NCBI RefSeq assembly: GCF_016623615.1
Contig: NZ_JAEHFX010000001.1
Span: 868,001 to 932,000 of the forward strand
Direction: 5' to 3'
DNA: 64,000 nucleotides
Origin: Adhaeribacter terrigena
GTDB taxonomy: Bacteria > Bacteroidota > Bacteroidia > Cytophagales > Hymenobacteraceae
A model generated the notes under the pieces. That model searched no databases and was not told the DNA's origin. It worked only from the letters and a program-made list of their open reading frames with translations. Below are positions 783 through 62,981 of the stretch, one piece after another (within the stretch, counting starts at the first letter, position 1; the number at the start of each line of letters is the position of its first letter). Position numbers and translations under genes: made by a program.

Positions 783-809
783 AGTTTTTCAGCTTAAAAG
801 CATAGCGTT

Positions 810-2633
810 TTAATGTTGTTGCAATTGCAGTTTTAACAGGTTCGCATACAGGCCGTTATCTTCAGAAAGCGCTTCGTGCGAACCTTCTTCGGCAATCTGG
901 CCGCCATCGATTACCAGAATTTTATCAGCTTTGCGGATGGTGCTTAAACGGTGGGCAATAATGATGCTGGTGCGGTCTTTCATGAGTTCGTCCATGGCAT
1001 CCTGCACCAGTTTTTCGCTTTCCGAATCGAGGGAGCTTGTGGCTTCGTCTAATACCAGAATGGCCGGGTTTTTCAGGATGGCCCGCGCTATGGCAATGCG
1101 TTGGCGCTGGCCGCCGGAAAGCTTGATGCCGCGTTCGCCAACCACAGTTTCAAAACCTTCGGGGAAAGAAGAAACGAACTGGTACGCATTGGCTTTCCGG
1201 GCGGCTTCGGTAATTTCTTCCAACGTAGCGTTTGGTTTCCCGTAGGCAATATTTTCGCGGATGGTGCCGCCAAATAAAATGGTTTCCTGCGGTACAATGC
1301 CGATGTTGTGGCGCAGCTGCGTGAGATTGAACGCATTAATATCTTTTCCATCGATGCTGATGGTACCGCTTTGCAGGTCGTAGAATTTCATGAGCAGCTG
1401 CACAATGGTCGATTTACCGGCCCCGCTCGGGCCAACCAGCGCAATTTTTTCGCCGCTTTTAATGCTGAAGCTGATGTTTTTGAGTACCTGCACATCGGGG
1501 CGGGTAGGGTAGGAGAAGGCCACATTCTGGTAGGAAATATTGCCCTGTACCCGCGAAGCCGCGTTGTTGAACGGTTCGCTTTCCTGCACCGGTTCTTCGG
1601 TTTCGTCCAGAATTTCCAGTACCCGTTCCGAAGCGCCCAACGACACTTGTAACTTGCTGTACAGATCGCCCAAGCCGCCCACGGAAGCGCCAATGAATGT
1701 GGTGTACATCACGAAAGAAAGCAGCTCGCCGATAGTAATATCACCGTTTTGCACCAGCGTGGCGCCGTACCAGATAATGGCAATGATGCCCCCGAAAATG
1801 CCGATGATGATGAATGAAACGAACGCGCCGCGGTAATAGGAAGCCTGCAGGGCGGTGCGAACCGTTTTATTCAGGGCGGTGTTGTAGCGTTTTATTTCGA
1901 AGAATTCGTTTGTGAAAGCTTTTACGGCGTTGATGGCTTGCAGCGTTTCTTCCACGATCACGTTCGTTTTAGCGAGTTCATCCTGGGTGCTGCGGCTCAG
2001 TTTTTTAATGCGCTTCCCAAAAACCATGGCCAGCACAATGATGAACGGAAACGTAGCCAGCATGAATAAACTCAGTTTCACCGACATGACCATGATGAAA
2101 ACTACGCCGCCGACCAGGGTGATCACCTGCCGGAAAAGTTCGGCCAGGGTGATGGAAAGCGTGTCTTGTAATTGCCCTACGTCGGAAGTGATGCGGCTGG
2201 TAATTTCGCCTACGCGCCGTTTTTCGTAAAATTGAATGGGCAGCGTCATGAATTGCCTGTACAAGCTCCGGCGGATATCGGCTACGGCATTTTCAGAAAC
2301 CTGGGCGAAGAAATAGATGCGGAAAAAAGAGAAAATTCCCTGCAATAAAATTACCCCGAACAAACCCAGCGCAATCAGGTTGATGTCGTTCACAAACCAG
2401 TCGGTTTTACCCATAGCCGAATCGACGAGCTTGCCGGTTACGAGGGGGAAAACCATGAAAGTGGAGCTGGAAAGCAATAAAAAGAAAAGCCCGATGATGA
2501 ATTTGGCTTTGTAAGGCAGCACGTAATTAAAAATGCGCAGTCCTTTTTTGAGGTTCTCTTTGGTAAGAGGTTTTTTATTTTCTTTATCGTCAGCGCTTCC
2601 GTTTCTGGAAGGACCGAATCCGCGTTTTGCCAT
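810..2633 (-). CDS. ABC exporter half-transporter (MsbA/ABCB type), fused membrane and ATPase domains
   Basis: This 607-residue protein has the usual length of an exporter half-transporter that works as a homodimer in the inner membrane. Residues about 45-330 hold the six-helix ABC transmembrane domain. The nucleotide-binding domain follows with Walker A GPSGAGKST (about 401-409), signature LSGGQRQR (about 503), Walker B ILVLDEATSSLD (about 524) and switch IIAHRLST (about 560). Sequence alone does not tell lipid A, drug or peptide substrates apart; MsbA-like lipid flipping is the default guess. It is monocistronic. Its stop codon directly abuts a copy of the dispersed ATAGCGTTTT motif, and a terminator follows. 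Confidence 0.92.
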   Translation of the reverse strand: MAKRGFGPSRNGSADDKENKKPLTKENLKKGLRIFNYVLPYKAKFIIGLFFLLLSSSTFMVFPLVTGKLVDSAMGKTDWFVNDINLIALGLFGVILLQGIFSFFRIYFFAQVSENAVADIRRSLYRQFMTLPIQFYEKRRVGEITSRITSDVGQLQDTLSITLAELFRQVITLVGGVVFIMVMSVKLSLFMLATFPFIIVLAMVFGKRIKKLSRSTQDELAKTNVIVEETLQAINAVKAFTNEFFEIKRYNTALNKTVRTALQASYYRGAFVSFIIIGIFGGIIAIIWYGATLVQNGDITIGELLSFVMYTTFIGASVGGLGDLYSKLQVSLGASERVLEILDETEEPVQESEPFNNAASRVQGNISYQNVAFSYPTRPDVQVLKNISFSIKSGEKIALVGPSGAGKSTIVQLLMKFYDLQSGTISIDGKDINAFNLTQLRHNIGIVPQETILFGGTIRENIAYGKPNATLEEITEAARKANAYQFVSSFPEGFETVVGERGIKLSGGQRQRIAIARAILKNPAILVLDEATSSLDSESEKLVQDAMDELMKDRTSIIIAHRLSTIRKADKILVIDGGQIAEEGSHEALSEDNGLYANLLKLQLQQH

Positions 2634-2662
2634 TCTCTGCTTTTGTATTAGTTTTTTTGCCT

Positions 2663-2785
2663 GAAAGCATAGCGTTTTGAGCTTTGGTTGATCTCAGGGA
2701 AAAATCGTGCAAAGATACGGAAATTTAAGGAGTTTTGCTTGGAAAGCGGTTGGCCGGAGTTTTTTAGCTGGAAAGGATAGCGTTT
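2663..2785. repeat. Left direct repeat flanking the WG-repeat gene block
   Basis: It reads: dispersed motif, then CAGGGAAAAATCG, then AAGATACGGAAATTTAAGGA, then GTTTTG, a T-rich stretch and a second motif copy. The same order recurs at 4834-4938. Together the copies flank a block of about 2.2 kb holding two gene remnants and the WG-repeat gene. This copy also carries the exporter's -7 box. Confidence 0.6.
2710..2717 (-). promoter_or_regulatory. Bacteroidota -7 box upstream of the ABC exporter
   Basis: TATCTTTG on the minus strand fits TAnnTTTG and lies about 77 bases upstream of the exporter ATG. No good TTTG -33 box sits at the ideal spacing, so this is tentative. Confidence 0.4.
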
Positions 2786-2870
2786 CTACATCGCCTTTGG
2801 GAATGGCAGCAATCAGGTTGCGGGTGTAATCGTTTTGGGATTGGTTGAAAACGCTATCAAAACCAGCCTG
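2778..2870 (-). pseudogene. Remnant of an oligopeptide-type ABC ATPase C-terminus
   Basis: The minus strand has 31 open codons reading QAGFDSVFNQSQNDYTRNLI then AAIPKGDVETL. This is the C-terminal signature of DppD/OppF-type ATP-binding subunits, whose usual form is HPYTRxLLxAIPxxD. No Walker or signature motif remains nearby, so only a scar of the gene is left. Its downstream end runs into a dispersed motif copy. Confidence 0.65.
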
Positions 2871-2911
2871 AAAAGTGCACCAAGCTATAACAATTTAAAT
2901 TAAAAGAGCTT

Positions 2912-4804: not shown

Positions 4805-4833
4805 TTTTCTGCTAATGAAATAGTTTTTCCCGC

Positions 4834-4938
4834 TAAAAGCATAGCGTTTTTGCTAAAGCTTTTTCAGGGAAAAATCGAAGATACGGAAATTTAAGGAGTT
4901 TTGAGTTTGGAGTTTTTGTGGCAAAAAGGATAGCGTTT
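4834..4938. repeat. Right direct repeat flanking the WG-repeat gene block
   Basis: It has the same order as 2663-2785: motif, CAGGGAAAAATCG, AGATACGGAAATTTAAGGA, GTTTTG, T-rich spacer, motif. It is slightly shorter because it lacks the TGCA before AAGATACGG. It lies directly upstream of the symporter remnant. Confidence 0.6.
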
Positions 4939-4950
4939 AATATTATCCAA

Positions 4951-9200: not shown

Positions 9201-9900
9201 GAAAGGTTAGTGTATTTTTTAATCGTCATCCCGACGAAAGGAGGGATCTAGTCAAGCTAATATGTTAGTTTGCAATTGAGTTTTATGCCTAAAAGGATAC
9301 CATTTTTATAACTGGCTTTTAGCTTTCAACCTCTAACTTTTTTCTTTCAAATTTGCTTTCTCCCTCAAGCCGGGTGGCTTCGTTTAGCTCCGCTGAATCT
9401 GTGATTTCTGCGTTCGCGTCTTCTATTCAAACTGGCCTTGCGGCCTGCCTAAAGGCACCGTATGAATAGGAGGCCGCGCACGCAGAAACTGGTGTCGGTT
9501 TATCTTCGTAGCTGACTTTCTTTTATTTTAGTTTCTCGGATAACGTGATTTTCTGGGGCGCTGCGCTGGCGATATGTGTGAAAATCAAATTAAAAATAAT
9601 CCTGTCTATCTTTTAATCTTGTAAATCGTGTTCAGACAAAAAAACACCATAATCAGATAAATCCCAATTCAGACAGTATTGATCGGGAATGCGTGCGGAC
9701 AGGTCGCGACCTGTCCCTACATCGTCACGCTAATCATAAGGATCATAAAAATCACAGTTCAGACAATTGTCCTGAAAATCCTTGAATCCTGAAAATCCTG
9801 ATCAAAAAAAGCCCTCCCCTGAATTAGGGGAGGGTTGGGTGGGTTGATTTCCAGGCTGCCGAATTTTGCTGACAGGTTCCTTTGCAGGTTTTATTTCAGA
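9201..9900. repeat. Composite intergenic element, type A, copy 1
   Basis: The order is: dispersed motif (9201), solo inverted-repeat arm CGTCATCCCGACGAAAGGAG (9227), second motif (9291), a 190-bp GC-rich core starting CTCCCTCAAGCCGGGTGGCT (about 9360), a run of CCTGAAAATCCTGATTCAGAC-like units, a perfect palindrome GGACAGGTCGCGACCTGTCC (9697-9716) and a CCCTCCCCTgaattAGGGGAGGG hairpin (9812-9834). The core pairs with itself (TTTCTGCG with CGCAGAAA, TATTCA with TGAATA) and so could form a structured RNA or DNA. Copies 2 and 3 are at 13450 and 54585. No coding sequence is supported inside. Confidence 0.75.
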
Positions 9901-9901: not shown

Positions 9902-10555
9902 TTATAACCCGAAATACGGATTGCGGCCGAAGCCGGAATTATAGGAATTGTAATTGTTGAAATATGGTGAACTGTATGGATTTCCGTGGGAAGTACGAAT
10001 GCTGCCGTGCACGGAAAAGTTTTCGCTGAACTTGTAGCTGGCGTTGAATTCGGTACCGTAGCTGGCCGGCATTTTAAGACCGTTCATCAGTTCGGGCTGG
10101 CCGGAAATACCGGAAAAGTCGCGCCACACGCTACCCGATAAACGTAATTTGTCGGAAACATCGTAAGCGCCGCCTACATGCACCAGATAATGTTTGGTAG
10201 CCATAGGTGGACGGTTTTCGTTGGCAAAAGGCGCGAAATTGCTGTTCAGATACGTTACGCTGGAAAACACGCTGAATCTGTTGTTCAGGCGGTAGTACAT
10301 GGCCGGCGATAAATACGAAGCATGGCCGTAATTGCTGAACATGGTGCCGGCCGATAAGCTGAACGATACTTTTTGCGGCACTTGCCCTACCGTTTTTACT
10401 GGCGCAACAGGAGTAGTTTTCGCAACGGAATCGGAGGAAAGGGTTGTTGCAACTTCCGGAACAGCATTGGTTAAAGCCGCTTTTTCAGTTTGCTGCGCGA
10501 AAGCGGTAAAGCTAAGGGTAGCGGAAAGGGCAATAAAAGTAAGTTTCAGTTTCAT
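9902..10555 (-). CDS. Predicted outer-membrane beta-barrel or surface protein
   Basis: This 217-residue protein has a clean signal peptide (cleavage after TAFAQ, about residue 20) and a threonine/valine-rich linker. The rest is rich in alternating aromatic and hydrophobic residues (for example FSVFSSVTYLNSNF and LRLSGSVWRDFSG), typical of antiparallel barrel strands. It ends in a Tyr/Asn-rich tail closing with PYFGL; a terminal hydrophobic residue fits outer-membrane assembly. I recognise no named family. Possible roles are a small porin-like or structural envelope protein. Confidence 0.6.
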   Translation of the reverse strand: MKLKLTFIALSATLSFTAFAQQTEKAALTNAVPEVATTLSSDSVAKTTPVAPVKTVGQVPQKVSFSLSAGTMFSNYGHASYLSPAMYYRLNNRFSVFSSVTYLNSNFAPFANENRPPMATKHYLVHVGGAYDVSDKLRLSGSVWRDFSGISGQPELMNGLKMPASYGTEFNASYKFSENFSVHGSIRTSHGNPYSSPYFNNYNSYNSGFGRNPYFGL

Positions 10556-10757: not shown

Positions 10758-12593
10758 TTATTTCAGCCAATTATCGCGCAGTTTTTTTGCCGATTCCGAT
10801 AGCGTTTTGCCGGTTTTTTCGGTACTGACCACTTCTATATCCGGATTTTCAATTAAAGTTACCGTGGCTGTTTTTACCTGGCTGCGCTGCATAAATTCTA
10901 AGGTTACTTTATTGCCGGGCTTGTGTTTTTTGAGGATGTTTTGGAGGGTTTTGGCGCTGGTTATTTTTTTGCCATCCAGTTTTAAAAGCACGTCTTCGTT
11001 TTCTAGCCCGGCCTGGTATAAAGGGCTGCCGCGTAAACTGCCGGCTTGCATGGTGGCACGGTTGCTGGCAAAAGAAAGCGGCGCAAAACCCAAAGAAGCT
11101 TCGTTTGGTTTTTCGGGGCGCAGCTCCAGCCCGGCGTTTTTCAGGAGCGGGTTAAAATCTATCGGCGCGTGCCCGTAAACGTATTTCTGAAAGAATTCGC
11201 TGGCGAAAGATTCGTTTTTGGTTAATTCGGCCAGGGTTTGTTCCAGGTCTTTGAGCACGTATGGCTTTTGCGTTTTGCCGTATTTCTGCCAAATGGCGCG
11301 CATATAATCGTCTAAACTTATACCTGCAAATTCGGAACGTAGAGTCAGATCTAAGGCTAAGGCTAGCACATCGCCGTGCGTATAATAAGAAACGAAAGTG
11401 TTCAGGCGGTTGGTATTATCTACAGATCGGGCGGCATCTACAAAAGGGGCTTGCCGGCTCATTTCGGCCGGAGAATAAAGATCTTTGCCGGGCAGCAGCA
11501 GGAAATTGTTCAGGTTGTTGCTCAGAACTTTGGCGTAATCATCTACCGAGAGTAAACCGCTGCGGCATAAAAGCAGATCGCCGTAATAATTCGTGAATCC
11601 TTCGGCAAACCAGAGTGCATCGCTTGAGTTGGCATCGGCAAAATTAAAAGGCTCCAGGTTTTGCGGACGAATGCGCTCTACATTCCAGGCATGAAAAAAT
11701 TCGTGCGAAACGGTCCCCAGATTATCTTTGGCGTGGGTTTTTAAAGGCCGGGAGGAAGTAAGGATGGTAGAGTTGCGGTGTTCCATGCCATCGCCGGCGG
11801 CGTGCGGCATGTAGCAGCCAATAAAGGTGTAGGTTCCGAAATCAAAAGCCGGTAATTCACCGAAAACGTCTTTGGCTTCCTGCACCATTTTTTTAGTATC
11901 CTCAACGTATTTATCGAATTCGGCGGCGGAACCATTATGGTGCAGGGCGAAGCGGATGGTTTGGGTTTTTCCATTTTCCTGGACCGGCCATTCGCGCCAC
12001 ATAAAGTCGGCTATTTTAACGGGCGAATCCATTAAATACTGGAAACTCGGGGCAGAAAACGTGTTTTTAGCAGTTTCGGGTTTAAGCTGGGTGGCAATGG
12101 TCCAGTTCTTTCCGGCGGGAATCTCGAATTTTACGAAACTGGGTTTCTGGTCGAAAACCGGGGCATACATAAACGTGGCCGGGGCATTTAAATGGGCATG
12201 CGTTTCATCTACTGCGGCGTAGGTGCCATCCGGCCGGTCGGCAAATAACGTGTAGGTGATTTTAACAGTACCATTGTGGCCCGTTACATTCCATTGGTGC
12301 AGATTGGGACGGGTTATTTTCAGCGTTTCGCCTTTGGAATTGGTGGCTTTTACGGCATATACATTTTTGGCAAATTCGTGCAGCGCATACCGGCCCGGTG
12401 AACTGCGAGCCATGCGCACTTCCAAAACTTCTGCAGGTACGCCGGTAAATTCGGCCGTAATTTCGGCTTCGTGATGCACTAAATTGGGAAACGAAACGGT
12501 GTAATTGGTTTGCGTTTGGGCTAGTAAAAGGGTAGGAAAAAGCAGTAAAAAACTGGCGGTAGAACGCAGTAATATTTTTTTCATAGTACGCAA
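10758..12593 (-). CDS. M61-family peptidase with C-terminal PDZ domain
   Basis: A 611-residue secreted metallopeptidase. The signal peptide ends near LLLAQ (about residue 26). The zinc motif is HEFFHAWN (about residue 294), and the third zinc ligand lies in WFAEGFTNYYGD about 35 residues later, as in M61 glycyl aminopeptidases. A PDZ domain occupies about residues 500-590 (GSLRGSPLYQAGLENEDVLL). M61 enzymes cleave N-terminal Gly/Ala or act on periplasmic peptides. The start could be the ATG at 12593 or the one three codons in (12584); the second gives a more standard MKK signal. Confidence 0.9.
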   Translation of the reverse strand: MRTMKKILLRSTASFLLLFPTLLLAQTQTNYTVSFPNLVHHEAEITAEFTGVPAEVLEVRMARSSPGRYALHEFAKNVYAVKATNSKGETLKITRPNLHQWNVTGHNGTVKITYTLFADRPDGTYAAVDETHAHLNAPATFMYAPVFDQKPSFVKFEIPAGKNWTIATQLKPETAKNTFSAPSFQYLMDSPVKIADFMWREWPVQENGKTQTIRFALHHNGSAAEFDKYVEDTKKMVQEAKDVFGELPAFDFGTYTFIGCYMPHAAGDGMEHRNSTILTSSRPLKTHAKDNLGTVSHEFFHAWNVERIRPQNLEPFNFADANSSDALWFAEGFTNYYGDLLLCRSGLLSVDDYAKVLSNNLNNFLLLPGKDLYSPAEMSRQAPFVDAARSVDNTNRLNTFVSYYTHGDVLALALDLTLRSEFAGISLDDYMRAIWQKYGKTQKPYVLKDLEQTLAELTKNESFASEFFQKYVYGHAPIDFNPLLKNAGLELRPEKPNEASLGFAPLSFASNRATMQAGSLRGSPLYQAGLENEDVLLKLDGKKITSAKTLQNILKKHKPGNKVTLEFMQRSQVKTATVTLIENPDIEVVSTEKTGKTLSESAKKLRDNWLK

Positions 12594-12722
12594 AAGCTTG
12601 GAACAGGGAAGATAAGAAAAAATGGCGGAATGTTAAGTTTACAAGGTATATGAAAGCAGTTTTTCAGATGAAAACCATAACGTTTTCCGGCGGGATTTCC
12701 GGTCGGTTTCAGATCCTGAGCA

Positions 12723-13361
12723 TTACCGTTTAAGGTAAACTGCCCCGAAAATAAGATCGTGATAAAAATGTTTTTTTTGCTTTTGTACCAGCGGAAATTT
12801 TTCGAAAGCTTTTTCAATTTCGGGCAGGCGGTTTGCCTGTAGGTTGGCGGTAAGTTTGAAGAACAGTACCATGGATTTGAGCAGACTTTTTTGCCAGTAC
12901 CGGGTAGCGTTTTGCGGCGCAAAATCGGCCAGGAGCCAAAGCCCGGCTGGTTTTAAATGCGTGTAAAGTTTATGCATGAGTAGCTGCAGGTTTTCAGGCT
13001 GAAACAGGTCGAGCAGGAAACCGGTAAAGACCACATCGAACGTTTCTTCGCGCTTTAATTCCTGTTCGGTTCCCAGCCGGAATTCTACTTTTACAGCAGA
13101 CTTTCTGGGGCTTTTTGCATAGCGTTTTTGACTTTGTTCCAGCATTTTTTCCGACGCTTCGAGGTAAAGGATCCTGCTTACGTTGGTTTGCTTCAGCATT
13201 TCTTCCAGAATCCAGCCCGTGCCACCACCGATTATTAAAACGGTGGCATTTTGGGGGATAAAAGGCAGCAGCCAGGTTTGGGAATTCTGAATGCTGCTGC
13301 CGAAAATAAGTTTGGCGAGCGGGTCGTAAAAAGGGGCTACAAAGTTGAAGTTGTTTTGCAA
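12723..13361 (-). CDS. Class I SAM-dependent methyltransferase
   Basis: A 212-residue Rossmann-type methyltransferase with SAM motif I VLIIGGGTGWILEEML (about 40-55), an acidic motif II in ILYLEASEKML, and motif IV-like FDVVFTGFLLDLF, followed by a Methyltransf_11-like LKPAGLWLLADF. The substrate is unknown; UbiE/COQ5-like small-molecule methylation is one possibility. A copy of the dispersed motif (13113-13129) lies inside the reading frame, which is unusual since nearly all other copies are intergenic. Confidence 0.8.
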   Translation of the reverse strand: MQNNFNFVAPFYDPLAKLIFGSSIQNSQTWLLPFIPQNATVLIIGGGTGWILEEMLKQTNVSRILYLEASEKMLEQSQKRYAKSPRKSAVKVEFRLGTEQELKREETFDVVFTGFLLDLFQPENLQLLMHKLYTHLKPAGLWLLADFAPQNATRYWQKSLLKSMVLFFKLTANLQANRLPEIEKAFEKFPLVQKQKKHFYHDLIFGAVYLKR

Positions 13362-13449
13362 TGTTTTTTGTGGCGAATGTAAGGGTTTTTTGGTTTTAAG
13401 GTGTGGGAAGTGTTGGTACTAAATAGTAAGCTGTTGATTTTTTCAGGCT

Positions 13450-14029
13450 GAAAGCATAGTGTTTTTCTCGGTCATCTCGACGAAAGGAGAGATCTCATCA
13501 GGTTTGTAGAAAGTTAGCTATTGAGTTTTTTAGTTTGAATAGTGTTTTACCCCACCTAAATAGCTAAATCAGAGGGAAGCTTTTTGGCTTCTCAATTTCA
13601 TTGCAGGTTTCAACCCATAACTTTTAACTTTCATAGTAAGCTTTTTCCCTCCAGCCGGGTGGCTTCGTTTCTGCGTTCGCGGCTGCAACCCTTCCTGCCC
13701 TGGCAGGCTGCCTCGTTCCTCGGCACCGGAAGTCTTGGAGGCCGCTCTCACAGAAACTGGTATCAGCTTCCCTTCGTAGCTTGCTTCTTTTTAGTTTAGT
13801 TTTCCGGATAACGTGATCTTCAGGTGACGCTGCGCTGGCGATATGGGCAGAAGAAGTTGGAAGAGAAATTCTGTAAATTATTTAATTCTGATAATTCAGA
13901 TTCAGACAAAAATCCTGCCCATCCAGTAAATCCTTAAAATCGTGTTCAGACTTCATTGCCGGCTGATTTAGCTGACGGTTTTAGGCTCCCCTGAAATAGT
14001 TGTTGGGTGGGGAAACACAGACTTAAACG
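13450..14029. repeat. Composite intergenic element, type A, copy 2
   Basis: The order matches copy 1: motif (13451), solo arm GTCATCTCGACGAAAGGAGA (13468), TATTGAGTTTTT, a reduced second motif, the GC-rich core with CCGGGTGGCTTCG (about 13655) and the tail of AATCCTGATTCAGAC-like units, ending in a CTCCCCTGAAATAG remnant. The core is the most divergent of the three, yet both ends still match in inverted orientation (GTTTCTGCG near 13667, CACAGAAAC near 13750). This conserved pairing despite sequence change suggests selection on structure. Confidence 0.7.
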
Positions 14030-14515: not shown

Positions 14516-14560
14516 GAAGCAGAAGAGTTTTTTACCGGTTTTGCATACCGTTTTTAAAGC

Positions 14561-15127
14561 TTAATTGTTTTCAGGTTCCGGGTTTTTGTTGCCTAAAGTA
14601 TAGCGTTCCAGAATGGTGTAATGCGGGTGCGGCTTCCGTAATTCCGATTCCCAAAGCGAAATTTCCTGCACCGGGAACAGCGTATTCTCTTTGGCAGGTG
14701 TCTGGGGCATTTTGGGCGGCCGGATATCTTTGGCAAACCGCGCAAGCGTAACGTGGGCAACCGGGTGCTGATGATCCATTTTAGCGCCTAAGGCAAACGT
14801 AACGGCACGTACCATTTTTTCGAAAGCCTGGTTTGCGGCAAATTCGGCCCAGATCAGGCGTGGCATTTTGGCATTGGGTCCGGGAGCCACGCGCAGTAGT
14901 TTCAGTTCGAAATTTTCCAGCTGCGGCGCCAAGGTATTTAGTTTTTCAGCAATTTCCGGAACCTGCGTTTTGGGTACGTTGCCAATAAAATGCACGGTTA
15001 AATGCCAGTTCTCTTCGGGAATAATGCGCACGCCTGGTTTTTCATAAGCGGGCAGATAAGTTACAAGTTCTTCGGTTAGCAAACCGGGCAAGGGAACCGC
15101 GACGAACAAACGGGCGTAATGCTTCAT
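14561..15127 (-). CDS. thpR: RNA 2',3'-cyclic phosphodiesterase (2'-5' RNA ligase family)
   Basis: This 188-residue 2H phosphoesterase has both catalytic HxTx motifs: HLTV in NWHLTVHFIGN (about residue 43) and HVTL in PVAHVTLARF (about residue 127). The N-terminal RLFVAVPLP and the overall length fit the bacterial ThpR family, which hydrolyses 2',3'-cyclic phosphates and can seal 2'-5' bonds. The 3' end of the reading frame overlaps one copy of the dispersed motif (14595-14608) and another copy lies between this gene and cinA. Confidence 0.88.
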   Translation of the reverse strand: MKHYARLFVAVPLPGLLTEELVTYLPAYEKPGVRIIPEENWHLTVHFIGNVPKTQVPEIAEKLNTLAPQLENFELKLLRVAPGPNAKMPRLIWAEFAANQAFEKMVRAVTFALGAKMDHQHPVAHVTLARFAKDIRPPKMPQTPAKENTLFPVQEISLWESELRKPHPHYTILERYTLGNKNPEPENN

Positions 15128-15248
15128 AATTTTCTGAAAAAAGTAATTTTACGGAAGATGGTGTGAGCATAGCCGGGCTTTGCTGGAAAATTCTTTACTT
15201 TTATGGACTGTTTTACTTTTTAAGCTTCAAATACTACCGTTTTAAATT

Positions 15249-17838: not shown

Positions 17839-17907
17839 AATCCGGTTCAGGTTCGTTTGCCGGCAGTTTTTAAGGTAATAACCATAGCGTTTTAGAAGCA
17901 AAGAAGG

Positions 17908-20809: not shown

Positions 20810-20905
20810 CGTGCTAAGCAGTTTTAGGGGTTGGCTGTATACCGTTTTTTGTGCTTTTACGGGAAAGGGCTGAAAAAGACGTTTCTGTACGGGTTTCGGG
20901 GAAGG

Positions 20906-20937: not shown

Positions 20938-20972
20938 CTCCATACTTTTCAGGCAAAAAATGATAGCGTTTT

Positions 20973-22376: not shown

Positions 22377-22599
22377 TCAGAAAATGGTATTGGTTGGGGG
22401 CTAAAAAGTCTGCCGGAGCGGAAATTTGTACCCTGATAATTGTTTCAGCCTTAAAAGTAACGATTATTTTTTTTCTGTGCGTGGTCAGGCCGAAAGCAAA
22501 TGCAGCGCAAAAGCGGAAAGATTTGGCCGGAAGTTTTGATTAGGGCGGAATTTCCCTGAACTTCGGCTTCTCCTGAACGGGCTTTTAAACGAATTAAAA

Positions 22600-23589: not shown

Positions 23590-23742
23590 TTGGAAAAAGT
23601 GCAAAATATTTTTTAAGCCTAAAACGCTAGGGTTTTTTGCCTGAAAAGTGCTTTTGTAGTAAATGTGCCAACTTTTAACGCCGGTTCTGGTTTATTAGGG
23701 ATCATTCAAAAAAAAATATTTTCAAAATTTCCGGAACTAATG

Positions 23743-32847: not shown

Positions 32848-32865
32848 TTTTTTGCTTTTTGGGTG

Positions 32866-35807: not shown

Positions 35808-35828
35808 CAGTCACGTTACTTTTGCAGC

Positions 35829-39809: not shown

Positions 39810-39835
39810 AGGTCACAAACCCTAGCCTTTTTACC

Positions 39836-41552: not shown

Positions 41553-41625
41553 ATGCAGTTTTTTGATTGAAAATGATACCATTTAAGAAACTATTCTCAA
41601 AAATTAGAGTTATGGCTTTAACAAG

Positions 41626-43971: not shown

Positions 43972-43991
43972 AGTTAGATCGCGGGAGTTTT

Positions 43992-44384
43992 TTACCGCAA
44001 TTCCCTACCGTTTTCAGGCTTATCGGGGAGGTGGCGGAGCAGAAAGTAAAAGCAAAGTACGTAAACCATCTGCGTACCGGCGGTATCCCAGTCCTGTTTC
44101 AGGGTTACGCCAAACAGCAGGGCACCCATTAACACGCCTCCGGCAAAAACTGCCCAGCGCAACCAGAAACCCGTTAAAATCAGCACCCCGATCACCAGTT
44201 CAGCCAACGGAATAACGTAACCCATGGCCAAAACCTAGGGGTAAGGCAAAACTGTTTCGGTAAAGCCGGCGGCCATTTTTTCGGCAAAACCACTTAGATT
44301 GAAAACGCGGGTTAAGCCGTGCATGAGCATGTTTACGCCCAGCCCAAGCCGGAGAATCAGGTGTGCCAGTTGCGGATTGGTCAT
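43992..44384 (-). pseudogene. DoxX-family membrane protein gene broken by an amber codon
   Basis: From ATG 44384 the frame reads LGVNMLMHGLTRVF then GFTETVLPYP up to codon 50, a TAG at 44235-44237. In the same frame it continues VLAMGYVIPLAELVIGVLIL, then TGFWLRWAVF and on to a normal stop (about 130 codons in all, the usual DoxX length). Both halves are well-formed DoxX sequence, so only one base keeps it from being intact. A restart at the TTG (44231) or ATG (44225) after the stop is possible. DoxX proteins have four membrane helices; roles are poorly known, some in respiratory or redox stress. Confidence 0.75.
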
Positions 44385-44543
44385 GGTTCAACGGTTAATT
44401 TCGGACGATATCTGAGTTCTGGATGAAGGAGTTTTTGGGCAGAAAAACATTGCGTTTTTTCTTGGCAGGTTTTGGTTTGCGGTTTGAAGCATACGGTAAA
44501 ACGGAAGGCTTTCGGGTTTAAAAAGTCGGGTTGAAAATAGTGA

Positions 44544-45380: not shown

Positions 45381-45535
45381 TGTTTTAAGGGCAAAAAGGA
45401 TAGTGCTTTAAAATTTTATAAACTCCTGAAAACTGAAAAATATTGTAGTCGCGTTATTTTGCCCGATAACTTTGATTTAATTCCTGCAGTTTTCTGAAAA
45501 AGGGTATCTTTTTTACGTGAAAAAGTGCCCGGAAA

Positions 45536-46585: not shown

Positions 46586-46681
46586 AGGCAGGTTCTATCT
46601 TTCAATTGTTTGAAATTTAAGTAAAATTCCATTTGACAGTATAACGCGGTGATTTTAAAAACGCTATGCTTTTACATGAAA

Positions 46682-46710
46682 AAAGTCTTTTCGCAGGACG
46701 AAAAGACTTT
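46682..46710 (-). terminator. Terminator of the PLP decarboxylase gene
   Basis: AAAGTCTTTTCG-cagga-CGAAAAGACTTT, running into T6 on the minus strand and into a dispersed motif copy in reverse orientation. Confidence 0.85.
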
Positions 46711-48432: not shown

Positions 48433-48570
48433 ACAGCAGTTTTTTGGTCTTAAAGCATAGCGTTTTTTTAAAGAAATCCGATATATTTACCAACGTATTG
48501 CTTTTCTGGCAAGATGGTTGCAAAACGGTTTTGTGCCGTGCCTGTTTGCGGAAATTTATTAATCATCCCT

Positions 48571-48972: not shown

Positions 48973-49003
48973 GCAGTTTTTTGATGTGAAACTATAGCAT
49001 TTT

Positions 49004-49040
49004 AAAAGCCTTGCCGGAAAACCGGCAAGGCTTTTTTTTT
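49004..49040 (+). terminator. Terminator between the two DUF5329 genes
   Basis: AAAAGCCTTGCCGG-aaaa-CCGGCAAGGCTTTTTTTTT, preceded by a dispersed motif copy (48988-49004). Confidence 0.93.
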
Positions 49041-50426: not shown

Positions 50427-50550
50427 GAATTGTGGGTTGGTTTGTTTGTACTGAACGGTTTTTAAGCGGAAAATGATAGTGTTTTTTGCCCGAAACTGAG
50501 GTTGCTTTTATTCATATTAGCAGACCTTTTGAGCCTAGAACCAAATCGTT

Positions 50551-51228
50551 TTATTGATTCGTATTTTCAGTTGGTGGGGTAAATTTAATTGTTTTTTGAA
50601 CCGGAGGTGGAGGCGCGCTTACTTTAAAATCTCTCCGGTTTACGATCGGTGTCACCAGACTATCATCGTTTAGTTTATAATCTTTTCCGGCCAGTTTTAA
50701 GGAATCAGGATTAACTGCAAAGTCAAATAACTTTTCTGATATCTTACCAAGTTTAAAGTCGTAAAGGGAACCTGATTTTATATGATCAATATAAAAGTAT
50801 CTTGTAGTGGTGTCTTTTTTATATTCCAGAAAGATAATTGGCCCGCTATAAAGTACGGCGTTTTCTTCAGGATTATTAAGCCTTGTTCCACTTTTTTTAG
50901 TAAAGAGGTACGGTTCAAAATAAGCGATGTCTCTTTTCAGTGAAAGCGGAATTTTACCGGTAAAGTATTTCGCTGGCTGTTTTCCGTATTGATATTCGTT
51001 AAAACCACTTTGATTTTGCTTTAAAAGAACGGAATCTGTATTCAGATTGATCTGCATAAAATGAGAAAATCTCCAACCTCTATTTGTAGAATTTTCTGAT
51101 GGATTTCCATTGAAAGAGCCAAACCTTATCTGATGTATTTCTGGTTTTTTTTGATTATTCTGCACTTGATTGCATCCTGAAAATGATAGGAAGAACAAGT
51201 ATAACGCTATCAGTTTTAATGTAGACAT
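50551..51228 (-). CDS. Hypothetical lipoprotein
   Basis: 225 residues. A lipoprotein signal with lipobox FSGC puts cysteine at about residue 19. The body is beta-rich and charged (FTGKIPLSLKRDIAYFEPYL; IFLEYKKDTTTRYFYIDH) and the C-terminus is Pro/Thr-rich (APPPPVQK). No family recognised. It is somewhat more AT-rich than dnaK next to it. Confidence 0.65.
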   Translation of the reverse strand: MSTLKLIALYLFFLSFSGCNQVQNNQKKPEIHQIRFGSFNGNPSENSTNRGWRFSHFMQINLNTDSVLLKQNQSGFNEYQYGKQPAKYFTGKIPLSLKRDIAYFEPYLFTKKSGTRLNNPEENAVLYSGPIIFLEYKKDTTTRYFYIDHIKSGSLYDFKLGKISEKLFDFAVNPDSLKLAGKDYKLNDDSLVTPIVNRRDFKVSAPPPPVQKTIKFTPPTENTNQ

Positions 51229-51283: not shown

Positions 51284-51314
51284 AAGTCCCGGAGAAATCT
51301 CTCCGGGACTTTTT
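51284..51314 (-). terminator. Terminator of dnaK
   Basis: AAGTCCCGGAGA-aatc-TCTCCGGGACTTTTT, then a dispersed motif copy that abuts the dnaK stop. Confidence 0.9.
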
Positions 51315-51337
51315 AAGCTTAAAACGATACCGTTTTA

Positions 51338-54500: not shown

Positions 54501-54584
54501 AAAAACAGGTTTCAATAACAAATGGGGGTAACCCGACAAATATACGAATTTCTTGCTTTTTTTACTGGCATTAGTTTTTTGTCT

Positions 54585-55209
54585 GAAAAGGATAGCGTTT
54601 TTTATCGTCATCCCGACGATAGGAGGGATCTATTTAAGATAATAAGCAAGTTTGTTATTGAGTTTTGAATATCAAAACGATAGCGTTTTCATAGCAAGCT
54701 TTAGTTTTTAATTATTAATTATTAATTAAACTTTCTCCCTCAAGCCGGGCGGCTTCGTTTAGCTCCGCTGAATCTTTGATTTCTGCATTCGCGTCTTCTA
54801 TTCAAACTGGCCTTGCGGCCTGCCTGAAGGCACTGTATGAATAGGAGGCCGCGCCCGCAGAAACTGGTGTCGGTTTCCTTTGTAGTAAGCTTTCTTTTAG
54901 TTTAGTTTTTCGGATAACGTGATTTTCAGGAGCGCTGCGCTGGCTAAACGCGTAAAAAAGTTCTCCCCTGTTTTTAGCTATTTAGGTGGGGCGATCCTGA
55001 TAATTCTTCAATTGGCTTCGCCGATCTTCGTTTCTGTAAATTCTGATTCTGACAGGTATGGATAACGTGCGGACAGGTTGCAACCTCTCCCTACATCGTC
55101 ACGATAATCAAAATAATCACATCAATGAAAAAATTACATCAATCAAAAGAATCACAGTTCGGACAATTGTCCTGAGAATCCTTTAATCCTGAAAATACTG
55201 ATTCAGATA
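54585..55209. repeat. Composite intergenic element, type A, copy 3
   Basis: Motif (54585), solo arm CGTCATCCCGACGATAGGAG (54606), TTATTGAGTTTTG, second motif (54673), GC-rich core starting CTCCCTCAAGCCGGGCGGCT (about 54738), the ATTGGCTTCGCCGATCTTCG unit (55010), the GTGCGGACAGGTTGCAACCT palindrome variant (about 55069) and tail units. It is over 80% alike by eye to copy 1 through the core. The core keeps the paired ends TTTCTGCA/GCAGAAAC and TATTCA/TGAATA. Confidence 0.78.
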
Positions 55210-55791: not shown

Positions 55792-55805
55792 AGTTTTCAG
55801 GAGGA

Positions 55806-55860
55806 AAAGCCTACCGTTTTTCTGCCAGACCTGATTATTCGTGCCGGAAAAACGGTAGGG
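55806..55860. repeat. Two inverted motif copies forming a hairpin
   Basis: CCTACCGTTTTTC and GGAAAAACGGTAGG face each other across about 27 bases. Like 35829-35882, this is a pair of dispersed motifs in opposite orientation. On the minus strand a short T run follows, so it may end the SDR transcript. Confidence 0.65.
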
Positions 55861-55880
55861 GAAAGGTTGAAAAAAGTCGG

Positions 55881-56745: not shown

Positions 56746-56843
56746 GGATTAAAGTAGTTTGAAGTTTTGAAACAGTTAAAACAACGCTATGGTTTTCGCA
56801 CTAAAAACTCATAACGCTTCAGGTATAACTTTAAACTAAAAAG

Positions 56844-57764: not shown

Positions 57765-58993
57765 AGCGTTGCGGAGATCCAATCCATAATTTTTTGTGTG
57801 GCACCGGCCTGTCCGGCAATGTAGGTTTTCTGCCTTGCGGCAATAGCGTTTTTCGTTTCCGGTTTTTTCACGTTTTCGAATACCGTTTCCAGCTCCGCGA
57901 AGTTATTTACAGGAAAGGCCGTTTGCAACGCAACGAGGTCTTTGGCTTCCTGGAATTTCTCGTATTTCGGACCGAAAAAAAGCGGCAAACCAAACACGGC
58001 AGCTTCCAAAGTATTGTGCAAACCTTTCCCAAACGCGCCGCCGATAAAAGCATACGAACCATAGCCATAAAGCGACGAAAGCATGCCGATATTGTCGATG
58101 ATCAATACGGAATATTCTGTCAGGTCACGAGTTTTAACTTCGGAAAAACGGATCGCGGTACCGGCAAATTCGTGGCAAAGCGCGGCAATTTCGTTTTCGT
58201 GAATTTCGTGCGGCGCAATGATGAATTTCAGTTCCGGCTGGTATTTTTTAAGGAATGGAACCAGTACCTGCATGTCTTCGGGCCACGAGCTGCCAATTAC
58301 AAATATCTCTTTGCCGGCTTTAAAAGCTTCCACTACCGGAATTGTTTTCACGCTGGCCGCCGTTTGCAAAACCCGGTCGAAGCGCGTATCGCCGGCCACG
58401 GAAACGTTGTTTATCTGTATGCTTTTCAGCAGGTTATCAGATTGCAGGTTTTGAGTGAAAAACCAGGAAAAATTGCGCAAAATATTCCGGTAAAAGCCGC
58501 CGTACGGTTTAAAGAAAAGCTGGCCTTCGCGGAAAATCGTGGAAATGGAAATGACCGGCACGTTCTGGTTTTTCAGTTCCTGCGTAAAGTAATGCCAGAA
58601 TTCATATTTCACGAATACCGCGAGTTTTGGCCGCAAAAGCGATACCATTTTCCGGGCGTTTGTGGCGGAATCTTTCGGCAAGTAAAAAATGTAATGGGCG
58701 CCGGCATAGTTTTTCCGCACTTCGTAACCGGAAGGAGAGAAGAAGCTGAGCGCAATTTTGTATTCCGGATACTGCTGTGCAAACGCCTCGATCACCGGCC
58801 GGCCCTGTTCAAATTCCCCTAACGAGGCACAATGAAACCACGCCACCGGCGCCGTATTTCCCTTTAGTTTCGCTTCCAGTTCCGCCCACATGTTTTGGCG
58901 CCCTTTCACCATCAGCTTCGCCTTGGTATGAAAAGGGGCCGCCAGCCGCACAAACAGCCAGTAAAACCAAATGGAAAGATTGTAAAGCAGCAT
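57761..58993 (-). CDS. waaA: 3-deoxy-D-manno-octulosonic acid transferase
   Basis: 410 residues. The GT30 signature has FHCASLGEFEQGRPVIEAFA (catalytic Glu about residue 61), then YPEYKIALSFFSPSGYEV. The GT-B C-domain has YSVLIIDNIGMLSSLYGYGS (about 285) and AFIGGAFGKGLHNTLEAAVF (about 310). KdtA/WaaA attaches Kdo to lipid A at the inner membrane. Its stop overlaps the rsgA start, so the two are co-translated. Confidence 0.95.
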   Translation of the reverse strand: MLLYNLSIWFYWLFVRLAAPFHTKAKLMVKGRQNMWAELEAKLKGNTAPVAWFHCASLGEFEQGRPVIEAFAQQYPEYKIALSFFSPSGYEVRKNYAGAHYIFYLPKDSATNARKMVSLLRPKLAVFVKYEFWHYFTQELKNQNVPVISISTIFREGQLFFKPYGGFYRNILRNFSWFFTQNLQSDNLLKSIQINNVSVAGDTRFDRVLQTAASVKTIPVVEAFKAGKEIFVIGSSWPEDMQVLVPFLKKYQPELKFIIAPHEIHENEIAALCHEFAGTAIRFSEVKTRDLTEYSVLIIDNIGMLSSLYGYGSYAFIGGAFGKGLHNTLEAAVFGLPLFFGPKYEKFQEAKDLVALQTAFPVNNFAELETVFENVKKPETKNAIAARQKTYIAGQAGATQKIMDWISATL

Positions 58994-59139
58994 TTCGATG
59001 ATTCGAATGTTCGTAGTTCGTATGTTCGACTTTTAAAGTCCGGAACGATAGCGTTATGCCGGGCAAAGGTACGGTTAAAATGAGAGAAAAGCAGAAGGAA
59101 GCAAGAAGAAGGATTTTTTGAAAATGATTGATCCGCGAA

Positions 59140-59262: not shown

Positions 59263-59443
59263 TCAGGAATTCATTAAAATGAAAACAACTGCTACAAAGC
59301 TGCAGCGGTTTTGCTTTTAAAATCAATACCGTTTTCCGGTAAAAAATTCGAACCATCAAAAAAAAATAAACCTTTTCCTGATTTAACAGTTAAATAAAAG
59401 TTTGCTCAAAATTGCTTCAATATAAAATTCCGTTGCCTTTTTC

Positions 59444-62158: not shown

Positions 62159-62598
62159 GAAAATTATCGCCGCTGAAAATGATCATGTTGGTGGACGACG
62201 ACGATACCACCAACTACCTGAACCAACGCCTGCTGGAGAAACTGGATGCCGCCGAAAAGGTGCTGGTTATGAAAGACGGCGAAGAAGCCCTGAATTACCT
62301 TACCAAAGCCTGCGAATCGGCCCATTCCGAAGAGTTCCCTTGCCCGGACCTCATGTTCCTGGATATTAAAATGCCGGTTATGGATGGGTTTGAATTTCTG
62401 GAAGCCTATAAGAATTCTAAACTTACTTTTAAACAGGAGATCGTGATCATGATGCTTACTTCGTCGGCCAGTTTCTACGATCTGGAAAAGCTGAAACAAT
62501 TCCCCGACGTTAAAAAGCACTACTCCAAATCGTTAACCGAAACCGACGTAAAAGATATCATGGAAGCTTATTTCCCGGCCCACGTTTCGCAGGTTTGA
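62155..62598 (+). CDS. Single-domain response regulator (receiver)
   Basis: 147 residues, receiver domain only. The acidic pocket is VDDDDTT (about residue 13), phosphoacceptor Asp in LMFLDIKMPVMDGFEFLEAY (about 70) and Thr/Ser in MMLTSSAS (about 102). The usual Lys-Pro near residue 123 reads YSKSL, so the invariant Lys is followed by Ser instead of Pro. No output domain, as in CheY-like or phosphorelay partners. Start overlaps the kinase stop by four bases; it is the probable partner of that kinase. Confidence 0.93.
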   Translation: MRKLSPLKMIMLVDDDDTTNYLNQRLLEKLDAAEKVLVMKDGEEALNYLTKACESAHSEEFPCPDLMFLDIKMPVMDGFEFLEAYKNSKLTFKQEIVIMMLTSSASFYDLEKLKQFPDVKKHYSKSLTETDVKDIMEAYFPAHVSQV

Positions 62599-62755
62599 TT
62601 TTAAGATGGTTCGAATTTTCGATCTTTCGAAGATTCTACTTTTTGAAGAGAAAACGGTATCGTTTTAGAATGAAAAACTGCTTCAGCAACGGAGCAGTTT
62701 TTTGCTTTTAAACCATATCGTTTTTGATTGAGGTCCACTGAAAAAAATATTTCTT

Positions 62756-62851
62756 AAATGCGAAATTCCTTCCCCAACCTCTTGAAAATGGGACTTTATC
62801 AGATAACGTATTTTTGATAGTCTTCCTTTGAGGGGGAGGAATTACGCATTT
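62756..62851. repeat. 96-bp inverted-repeat element (second family)
   Basis: Left AAATGCGAAATTCCTTCCCC and right GGGGAGGAATTACGCATTT match in inverse orientation with one mismatch and one extra base. The centre has GGACTTTATCAGA. A weaker copy is at 59140-59262. Confidence 0.75.
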
Positions 62852-62874
62852 CAAAGTCCAAGCCCAATAAAAAC

Positions 62875-62909
62875 AAAAGCCGCCCCGAAATACTTCGGGG
62901 CGGCTTTTT
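62875..62909 (-). terminator. Terminator of the peroxiredoxin gene
   Basis: AAAAGCCGCCCCGAA-atac-TTCGGGGCGGCTTTTT, followed by a dispersed motif copy. Confidence 0.93.
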
Positions 62910-62981
62910 CTTATAAAAACGATACCGTTTTCCGGTAAAAAAGTCTTAAATCTTACCGCTTAAGTCTTTCGTCTGAAAAAA

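What the first reader, a model, noticed from the sequence alone, without database searches (positions are those of the whole stretch)
797..62930. More than 40 copies of a strand-polar intergenic motif, about one per 1.4 kb
Seen: about 40 copies of T-tract + CTGAAAASS[AC]TA[GC]CGTTTT face the same way on the + strand; about 6 face the other way. They lie almost only between genes. In the mostly plus-strand block 30.5-44.5 kb all 11 face forward (apart from the inverted partner of the 35.8 kb hairpin), and in the mostly minus-strand blocks the great majority also do, so orientation follows the chromosome strand and not transcription. Density recalls DNA uptake sequences (USS/DUS, about one per 1-2 kb), but polarity recalls Chi or FtsK-orienting (KOPS) sites. 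Confinement to intergenic DNA fits neither exactly. A nucleoid-protein or segregation site, or a new polar genome marker, is possible. This is my best candidate for an undescribed system.
Basis: partly seen in the sequence, partly recalled or inferred. Interest (0 to 1): 0.85.

Follow-up and report, generated by a model that had tools for sequence, protein, structure and literature searches.

The report
Likely DNA uptake tag in Bacteroidota
The chromosome of this relative of Adhaeribacter soli carries thousands of copies of one 30-letter DNA tag, spread like the tags that Haemophilus and Neisseria use to recognise and take up DNA of their own kind; whether it does that job is untested.

Summary
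The motif is real and far beyond chance. It is longer and more frequent than described: a 30-bp element, A-S-TTTTT-nnGCYn-AAAA-SSM-TASCGTTTT, at 65 places in the window and about one per 1.1 kb in 764 kb of the genome (696 places). ASTTTT-N14-TASCGTTT occurs 2,225 times genome-wide, the reversed control 0 times. The polarity is not real: 348 sites face each way. Confinement to intergenic DNA is partial: 240 of 696 lie in genes, though intergenic density is about tenfold higher.

The pattern matches uptake signal sequences (USS/DUS): one per kb, no strong orientation bias, many coding copies, more perfect than one-mismatch copies (461 vs 282), AT tracts about one helical turn apart, and change by substitution (22 of 24 ungapped). 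The sister species Adhaeribacter soli has a looser form; 57 other relatives have 0-2 exact cores each. Two type IV pilus profiles found nothing over cut-off in this genome; ComEC is present. Other genera of the family carry other hyper-abundant words. Best reading: a USS-like tag in Bacteroidota; function untested.

The parts
783..812 (+). 30-bp element
   Evidence: 37.3 bits, gene edge
2650..2679 (+). 30-bp element
   Evidence: 35.0 bits, intergenic
2758..2787 (+). 30-bp element
   Evidence: 35.1 bits, intergenic
2847..2876 (-). 30-bp element
   Evidence: 27.4 bits, intergenic
4822..4851 (+). 30-bp element
   Evidence: 35.8 bits, intergenic
4911..4940 (+). 30-bp element
   Evidence: 29.3 bits, intergenic
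9278..9307 (+). 30-bp element
   Evidence: 19.9 bits, intergenic
10368..10397 (+). 30-bp element
   Evidence: 26.9 bits, in gene; alignment to A. soli gapped in or near the site
10780..10809 (+). 30-bp element
   Evidence: 30.0 bits, in gene; ungapped against A. soli
12525..12554 (-). 30-bp element
   Evidence: 21.1 bits, in gene; alignment to A. soli gapped in or near the site
12658..12687 (+). 30-bp element
   Evidence: 30.6 bits, intergenic
12885..12914 (+). 30-bp element
   Evidence: 21.8 bits, in gene; ungapped against A. soli
13100..13129 (+). 30-bp element
   Evidence: 27.1 bits, in gene; alignment to A. soli gapped in or near the site
13236..13265 (-). 30-bp element
   Evidence: 19.4 bits, in gene; ungapped against A. 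soli
13437..13466 (+). 30-bp element
   Evidence: 28.9 bits, intergenic
14526..14555 (+). 30-bp element
   Evidence: 29.8 bits, intergenic
14581..14610 (+). 30-bp element
   Evidence: 18.9 bits, in gene
15215..15244 (+). 30-bp element
   Evidence: 29.7 bits, intergenic
17865..17894 (+). 30-bp element
   Evidence: 34.9 bits, intergenic
20820..20849 (+). 30-bp element
   Evidence: 18.6 bits, intergenic
20944..20973 (+). 30-bp element
   Evidence: 32.1 bits, gene edge
22380..22409 (-). 30-bp element
   Evidence: 26.3 bits, intergenic
23163..23192 (-). 30-bp element
   Evidence: 26.0 bits, in gene
23620..23649 (-). 30-bp element
   Evidence: 33.0 bits, intergenic; core matches on both strands
25206..25235 (+). 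30-bp element
   Evidence: 26.8 bits, gene edge
26374..26403 (-). 30-bp element
   Evidence: 28.4 bits, intergenic
28677..28706 (-). 30-bp element
   Evidence: 37.1 bits, intergenic
30563..30592 (+). 30-bp element
   Evidence: 35.3 bits, intergenic
30628..30657 (+). 30-bp element
   Evidence: 32.1 bits, intergenic
30789..30818 (+). 30-bp element
   Evidence: 34.9 bits, intergenic
32565..32594 (+). 30-bp element
   Evidence: 20.1 bits, in gene; ungapped against A. soli
32853..32882 (+). 30-bp element
   Evidence: 14.9 bits, intergenic
32939..32968 (+). 30-bp element
   Evidence: 36.8 bits, intergenic
35215..35244 (-). 30-bp element
   Evidence: 13.4 bits, in gene; ungapped against A. soli
35818..35847 (+). 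30-bp element
   Evidence: 29.8 bits, intergenic
37033..37062 (-). 30-bp element
   Evidence: 23.2 bits, intergenic
38284..38313 (+). 30-bp element
   Evidence: 36.1 bits, intergenic
39803..39832 (+). 30-bp element
   Evidence: 28.5 bits, intergenic
40510..40539 (-). 30-bp element
   Evidence: 33.0 bits, in gene; ungapped against A. soli
41557..41586 (+). 30-bp element
   Evidence: 23.7 bits, intergenic
41970..41999 (-). 30-bp element
   Evidence: 35.6 bits, in gene; ungapped against A. soli
43986..44015 (+). 30-bp element
   Evidence: 32.8 bits, gene edge
44430..44459 (+). 30-bp element
   Evidence: 28.7 bits, intergenic
44497..44526 (-). 30-bp element
   Evidence: 28.8 bits, intergenic
45381..45410 (+). 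30-bp element
   Evidence: 15.0 bits, intergenic
45497..45526 (-). 30-bp element
   Evidence: 29.4 bits, intergenic
46657..46686 (-). 30-bp element
   Evidence: 33.9 bits, intergenic
48438..48467 (+). 30-bp element
   Evidence: 36.2 bits, intergenic
48975..49004 (+). 30-bp element
   Evidence: 26.2 bits, intergenic
50457..50486 (+). 30-bp element
   Evidence: 28.7 bits, intergenic
50524..50553 (+). 30-bp element
   Evidence: 19.5 bits, gene edge
51308..51337 (+). 30-bp element
   Evidence: 38.0 bits, intergenic
54573..54602 (+). 30-bp element
   Evidence: 35.8 bits, called in gene, near its 5' end
54661..54690 (+). 30-bp element
   Evidence: 30.8 bits, intergenic; core matches on both strands
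55792..55821 (+). 30-bp element
   Evidence: 32.4 bits, in gene
55848..55877 (-). 30-bp element
   Evidence: 24.5 bits, in gene
56780..56809 (-). 30-bp element
   Evidence: 30.8 bits, intergenic
57824..57853 (+). 30-bp element
   Evidence: 13.6 bits, in gene; ungapped against A. soli
57861..57890 (+). 30-bp element
   Evidence: 17.2 bits, in gene; one base differs in A. soli
58623..58652 (+). 30-bp element
   Evidence: 25.6 bits, in gene; ungapped against A. soli
59029..59058 (+). 30-bp element
   Evidence: 25.2 bits, intergenic
59307..59336 (+). 30-bp element
   Evidence: 24.3 bits, intergenic
62650..62679 (-). 30-bp element
   Evidence: 35.8 bits, intergenic
62696..62725 (+). 30-bp element
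   Evidence: 32.4 bits, intergenic
62915..62944 (-). 30-bp element
   Evidence: 32.7 bits, intergenic; core matches on both strands

Best explanation
The element is a DNA uptake signal of the USS/DUS kind, or a recent remnant of one. A receptor at the cell surface or in the periplasm binds the 30-bp element: it reads the TASCGTTTT core and the two upstream A/T tracts, which lie about one helical turn apart. It thereby favours import of DNA of the same kind. Imported fragments recombine with the chromosome, so a mutation that improves a match is imported more often. This drive fills permissive DNA (intergenic gaps, tolerant codons) with near-perfect copies about 1 kb apart on either strand. Shown: abundance, architecture, lack of strong orientation bias, strong consensus, change by substitution, restriction to one species pair among the genomes searched, presence of a ComEC homologue. 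Inferred: competence, the receptor, biased uptake and the drive. No type IV pilus family tested (two profiles) was found in this genome, so the outer-membrane step would probably use other machinery.
For: Density: 696 places in 764 kb, one per 1,098 bp, about 4,000 by extrapolation to 4.43 Mb. Exact pattern 2,225 against 0 for the reversed control.
Orientation 348:348.
Density one per 279 bp outside genes, one per 2,652 bp inside.
Perfect matches to 12 fixed positions outnumber one-mismatch matches, 461 to 282, where Markov-3 sequence gives 2 and 43 (both strands, overlapping hits not merged). PMC1626085 (passages) names this excess as the anomaly that sets USS/DUS apart from regulatory sites.
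Information 28.2 bits where 11.1 would suffice to locate the sites; the first figure is raised somewhat because sites were chosen by score.
The middle tract is AAA or TTT as a block (columns 15-16: AA 468, TT 112 of 696, top mutual information), which suggests that DNA shape is read.
22 of 24 genic sites with an A. soli orthologue have no gap inside the site; strongly conserved columns mismatch at 0.190, uninformative ones at 0.373, not controlled for codon position.
A 40-kb stretch with surface-polysaccharide genes (gaps of GC 0.37-0.43) holds 13 places where about 36 are expected.
On the 420-kb block places per 5 kb are more even than in 2,000 of 2,000 random placements, also when genic and non-genic sites are shuffled within their class (var/mean 0.55 against 1.32).
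Exact cores: this genome 685, A. soli 40, 0-2 in each of 57 other relatives. In genome contigs only A. soli had more than one match.
ComEC present with an open frame.
Phylum precedent: Riemerella anatipestifer transforms without pilus homologues (PMC8459023, passage), and R. [quoted passage not shown]
Against: No competence or uptake data exist for this organism in what I saw. Type IV pilin (PF07963, a short profile) has no hit, and the T2SS/T4P ATPase (PF00437) none over its cut-off, in this genome; both known uptake-sequence families use pili. Other pilus families were not searched. DUF5689, the domain of one R. anatipestifer transformation protein, is also absent. ComEC occurs in all 12 genomes tested, with or without the motif, so it explains nothing specific. 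Close inverted pairs are not enriched: 29 inverted against 68 direct within 100 bp after merging, or 37 if the 8 hairpin pairs merged away are counted. The sister species has more one-mismatch than perfect copies (278 to 70). Even spacing holds in one of three blocks only; on the 140-kb block sites are more clustered than in 99.9 per cent of uniform placements. With looser orthologues and three flanking codons included, 4 of 21 genic sites have a gap. A dense respiratory operon also lacks sites for 11.7 kb, so scarcity does not mark foreign DNA only. A chromosomal protein that needs sites at a certain density, but not at fixed places, would give much of the same pattern.
Confidence: 0.6

Rival explanations
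1. Binding sites of an abundant intracellular DNA-binding protein (nucleoid or chromosome-organising) that is particular to this lineage; the site is read as a dimer around the TA step plus one outer A-tract, and selection keeps about one site per kb.
For: The core is partly two-fold symmetric, and 65 hit pairs overlap as dyads with an offset of 12. Sites occur on both strands and in genes. Sites are more even than random on the 420-kb block.
Against: About 28 bits of consensus for about 4,000 sites, and more perfect than one-mismatch copies, are not expected of intracellular sites that arise by mutation and selection (argument of PMC1626085). 0-2 exact cores in each of 57 other genomes of the order, although chromosome organisation is an old function.
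Confidence: 0.22
2. A short mobile or copied element (REP/MITE-like) spread by a transposase or by gene conversion of whole copies.
For: Strong consensus and intergenic preference. Genus g6 of the family has a 38-bp palindromic, nearly wholly intergenic repeat. 4 of 21 genic sites have a gap in or near the site.
Against: 22 of 24 genic copies have no indel inside the site against the orthologue. Several columns inside the element and the one just outside it carry almost no information, so copies do not look copied from one another. The AAAA block switches to TTTT.
Confidence: 0.06
3. A transcription signal: promoter or intrinsic terminator.
For: A T-tract followed by TA resembles the Bacteroidota promoter in a general way (recalled, not from a call). 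Some copies follow terminator-like hairpins in the sequence, for example before 51308 and beside 62915. Density is highest between convergent genes.
Against: Convergent gaps have a site per 204 bp and divergent gaps one per 356 bp, the reverse of a promoter. A third of sites are in genes, in either orientation (132 opposite, 108 same). Of eight copies folded as RNA one folds better than its shuffles (z -3.3), and they share no structure.
Confidence: 0.05
4. A polar chromosome marker (KOPS- or Chi-like) that follows replication arms.
For: Local bias of 46:19 in the window; 175:206 on C17 and 173:142 on C11, opposite in sign but weak.
Against: 348:348 over 764 kb, no long one-way blocks on the 420-kb stretch, and neighbouring sites agree in orientation in 292 of 559 cases.
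Confidence: 0.02

Closest known systems
Uptake signal sequences (USS) of Pasteurellaceae
   Same: Core plus two AT-rich tracts spaced by about a helical turn, about 30 bp in all; about one per kb; both orientations; non-coding preference with many coding copies; substitution not insertion; more perfect than one-mismatch copies (features from passages of PMC1626085 and PMC12616744)
   Different: Unrelated core; different phylum; two pilus profiles not found in the genome; uptake not tested; close inverted pairs not enriched
DNA uptake sequences (DUS) of Neisseriaceae, with dialects
   Same: Density; no strong polarity; lineage-specific words across genera of one family (PMC3630211 passages; words here)
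   Different: DUS are continuous and at most about 13 nt (PMC12616744 passage); inverted pairs associated with terminators are common in Neisseriaceae and not enriched here
Natural transformation of Riemerella (Flavobacteriaceae, Bacteroidota)
   Same: Same phylum; transformation without pilus homologues; R. [quoted passage not shown])
   Different: Only A- and T-rich k-mers were listed there and no uptake motif was shown; the DUF5689 domain is absent here

Membership tests
USS/DUS uptake signals | About one copy per kb, far above chance | tested here: met
   696 in 764 kb; 2,225 exact against 0 control genome-wide
USS/DUS uptake signals | No significant orientation bias | tested here: met
   348:348; 1,116:1,109 exact; the window alone is biased, 46:19
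USS/DUS uptake signals | Mostly non-coding but many coding copies | tested here: met
   240 genic, 456 intergenic or edge, of 696
USS/DUS uptake signals | More perfect than singly mismatched copies | tested here: met
   461 against 282 in this genome; in the sister A. soli 70 against 278, so met here only
USS/DUS uptake signals | Copies arise by substitution, not insertion | tested here: met
   22 of 24 ungapped inside the site; only 24 of 240 genic sites could be tested; 17 of 21 with flanks and looser orthologues
USS/DUS uptake signals | Close, oppositely oriented pairs | tested here: not met
   After merging 29 inverted and 68 direct pairs within 100 bp; merged beforehand: 65 overlapping dyads at offset 12, 8 inverted pairs at offset 11-12 and one direct pair
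USS/DUS uptake signals | Spacing more regular than random | tested here: inconclusive
   Met on the 420-kb block, 0 of 2,000 class-wise shuffles as even; not on the 140-kb block (706 of 2,000) or the window (1,038 of 2,000)
USS/DUS uptake signals | Depleted from acquired DNA | tested here: inconclusive
   One polysaccharide region is poor in sites (13 in 40 kb), but a dense respiratory operon is too
USS/DUS uptake signals | Organism is competent and prefers DNA with the motif | not testable with these tools
   Needs uptake assays
USS/DUS uptake signals | Type IV pilus uptake machine (both known families) | tested here: not met
   PF07963 0 hits; PF00437 none over cut-off in G000; other pilus families not searched
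USS/DUS uptake signals | ComEC inner-membrane channel | tested here: met
   PF03772 E 1.5e-64, open frame 739 aa; also in the 11 other genomes tested
KOPS/Chi polar markers | Orientation follows the replication arm | tested here: not met
   No one-way blocks; origin not located
REP/MITE mobile repeats | Insertion leaves a gap against the empty site | tested here: not met
   22 of 24 ungapped inside the site

The most novel reading that the evidence does not exclude
This family of Bacteroidota runs its own sequence-tagged DNA exchange without type IV pili. Different genera, and even species of one genus, use unrelated 'words' (30-bp tripartite here; CCCTAGGTG; YTATASTTK), gained, swapped and lost like dialects. 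It would be a third, independent origin of uptake signals, and the sister species A. soli would show one in decay or in build-up.
Probability: 0.42. Interest if true: 0.92.

Novelty: new variant of a known kind. Interest (0 to 1): 0.78.

Why it matters
[quoted passage not shown] A candidate in Bacteroidota, in a genome where two pilus profiles found nothing over cut-off, would suggest that self-tagging of DNA evolved again with another uptake machine. It would also give a natural series (strong here, relaxed in A. soli, absent in neighbours) in which to ask whether such tags spread by molecular drive or by selection. The motif makes this directly testable with one pair of DNA fragments.

Tried and rejected
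Rejected: chromosome polarity; promoter (context densities); shared RNA structure or terminator (eight sites folded); insertion element; phage origin (one match in each of 8 viral contigs).

Led nowhere: a type IV pilus link. The PF07963 and PF00437 hits in A. soli lie on one 30-kb contig; these families were not found over cut-off in the window's genome. DUF5689 link. The receptor was not found.

Corrected on the way: early counts include overlapping hits twice; counts from then on are merged. In the first 244 kb genic sites seemed biased against the gene strand (55:27); with 764 kb this is 132:108, p = 0.14. I first took the genus-g6 word for a dialect of the same architecture; its weight matrix proved to be a 38-bp palindrome, nearly all intergenic, so it may be another kind of element. 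The even spacing was first tested against uniform placement only; class-wise shuffles were added when the report was checked.

Rows dropped: 216 of 240 genic sites without a covering A. soli orthologue in the stretches held. One short stretch had no usable letters. Literature lists were capped: 15 of 806 papers shown, 20 of 30, 12 of 203, 12 of 13.

Full report
What is there. The core AAAASSNTASCGTTTT occurs 352 and 333 times on the two strands of the genome, the reversed control once on each. A weight matrix trained on 244 kb defines a 30-bp element with sharp edges: A S TTTTT n n G C Y n AAAA S S M TASCGTTTT. The exact sub-pattern ASTTTT-N14-TASCGTTT occurs 2,225 times against 0 for the control. 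On 764 kb, of which a 420-kb block of contig C17 was not used for training, there are 768 hits of at least 12 bits, or 696 places after merging of overlapping hits: one per 1,098 bp. On the first 344 kb there are 345 hits against 8 in Markov-3 sequence and 10 in the reversed sequence.

Polarity. The window is biased, 46 to 19, but the larger sample is 348 to 348. C17 alone has 175 to 206, the C11 stretches therefore 173 to 142. Blocks of 64 kb along C17 range from 25:33 to 33:22, and neighbouring sites agree in 292 of 559 cases. The origin was not located, but arm-wise polarity would show as one-way blocks, and none is seen in the stretches sampled.

Where it lies. Of 696 places 381 are intergenic, 75 overlap a gene edge and 240 are inside genes. 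With 83 per cent of DNA called as coding, density is one per 279 bp outside genes and one per 2,652 bp inside. It is highest between convergent genes (one per 204 bp), then tandem (271), then divergent (356), which is not a promoter pattern. The gene caller is home-made, so these shares are approximate.

How strong the consensus is. Over 30 columns the sites hold 28.2 bits; 11.1 would be enough to find them (sites chosen by score, so the first figure is somewhat raised). Perfect matches to twelve fixed positions outnumber one-mismatch matches, 461 to 282, although Markov-3 sequence gives 2 and 43. Redfield and colleagues (PMC1626085, abstract and passages) describe such an excess of perfect copies as a puzzling mark of USS and DUS, together with one copy per kb, no orientation bias, somewhat regular spacing, preference for non-coding DNA with many coding copies, and some closely spaced inverted pairs. 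Here density, orientation, coding share and excess of perfect copies are met. Regular spacing is met on one block of three: on C17, 0 of 2,000 shuffles that keep genic and non-genic sites in their class are as even; on the 140-kb block 706 and in the window 1,038 of 2,000. Inverted pairs are not enriched (29 against 68 direct; 37 with the 8 merged hairpin pairs).

Architecture. The tracts TTTTT, AAAA and the TTTT of the core are centred 10.5 and 12 bp apart. The middle tract is AAA in most copies and TTT in others, switching as a block, which suggests that the shape of the helix is read. USS have a core and two AT tracts, up to 32 nt (PMC12616744 passage), the second centred 12 positions from the first in the Haemophilus type (PMC1626085 passage). 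Of eight copies folded as RNA one folds better than its shuffles, and no structure is shared, which points to recognition as DNA.

How copies change. For 24 of 240 genic sites an A. soli orthologue (over 55 per cent identity) covers the place; 22 have no gap inside the site. An earlier pass with fewer stretches, looser orthologues and three flanking codons had 17 ungapped of 21. Conserved columns mismatch less (0.190) than free columns (0.373), without control for codon position. At the 22 ungapped places A. soli scores at least 12 bits in 12, 0-12 in 5 and below 0 in 5. In 27 syntenic gaps 15 have a site in both species, 6 only here, 2 only in A. soli and 4 in neither (Fisher p = 0.15, so shared position is not shown statistically). 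Copies appear to be gained and lost by substitution, which argues against a mobile element.

Relatives. A. soli has the same element in looser form: the matrix trained here finds 362 hits of at least 12 bits in 640 kb against 10-12 in three controls, and its own matrix 620 against 69-70, but there are 278 one-mismatch and only 70 perfect cores. The other 57 relatives have 0-2 exact cores each. In genome contigs (one genome for each of 84,980 species) a 28-letter form gave 25 stretches, 10 of them from A. soli and one each from 15 other records; the window's own genome may be left out there.

Machinery. ComEC is present in 12 of 12 genomes tested. Type IV pilin (0 hits) and T2SS/T4P ATPase (none over cut-off) are not found in this genome, while A. 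soli has both on one contig. DprA, ComF, secretins and ComEA-like proteins were not searched. DUF5689, part of the machinery found in Riemerella anatipestifer by transposon mutagenesis (PMC8459023, abstract, passages and section 19), is absent from both species. In a competition experiment R. [quoted passage not shown]). So pilus-free, self-preferring transformation is reported in the phylum, but nothing links a known machine to this element.

Other words in the family. Unsupervised counts in samples of other genera found further hyper-abundant words, then counted genome-wide. CCCTAGGTG: 1,608, 1,490 and 1,314 copies in three of seven species of genus g4, at most 5 in the other four. YTATASTTK: 8,808, 7,981, 5,079 and 3,690 in four of seven species of genus g2, against 375-504 in their reversed controls; in the other three g2 species 336-974 against 298-601. 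CGTTTTTGGC-N4-TTT-N4-GRAA: 120 and 185 in two of seven species of genus g6, 0-6 in the other five, but this one is a 38-bp palindrome. All are balanced between strands. Lineage-specific words recall the DUS dialects of Neisseriaceae (PMC3630211 passages). I count this as support for a family-wide phenomenon, not as proof of function, since short palindromic words can have other causes.

Verdict. The best reading is a USS-like uptake signal, confidence 0.6: genomic pattern shown, uptake inferred. It works like USS; I do not file it as a member, because the pilus families tested were not found and inverted pairs are not enriched. The strongest rival is a lineage-specific chromosomal binding protein (0.22). 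I found no report of an uptake sequence in this family or order in the searches, which cover open-licence PubMed Central papers only and partly showed capped lists. PMC2346458, PMC1939737 and PMC2397512 were seen as abstracts, the last with passages.

Noticed in passing
G004, G014, G029 (same family, genus g4); L046-L049: The word CCCTAGGTG is hyper-abundant in three species (1,314-1,608 copies) and near absent in four sister species of the same genus; in the G004 sample 34 of 48 places of CCCTAGGT are in genes.
   Followed up: partly
G007, G017, G022, G032 (same family, genus g2); L164, L173, L178: YTATASTTK words are hyper-abundant (3,690-8,808 copies against 375-504 control), both strands equal; TTATACTT stands out in the G007 and G022 samples, CTATAGTT in the G017 sample.
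   Followed up: partly
G016, G021 (same family, genus g6); L172, L177: A 38-bp palindromic repeat, CGTTTTTGGCYTGTTTTCYRGAAAACARGCCAAAAACG: 42 hits, two per palindrome, in 40 kb, 40 of them not inside genes. Its matrix also gives 21, 13 and 4 hits in 120, 20 and 20 kb of G006, G011 and G026.
   Followed up: partly
G000:C11:440001-480000 (L098, L099): Surface-polysaccharide genes by Pfam (six proteins scanned), gaps of GC 0.37-0.43, poor in the element (13 places).
   Followed up: yes
L123-L124 (A. soli contig G001:C7): A. soli has T2SS/T4P-type pilin and ATPase matches on a 30-kb contig; these families were not found over cut-off in the window's genome.
   Followed up: partly
G002 (genus g2), L038-L041: TTATATAT is also over-represented (60 on both strands against about 20 expected); 43 of 60 are not inside genes.
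   Followed up: no
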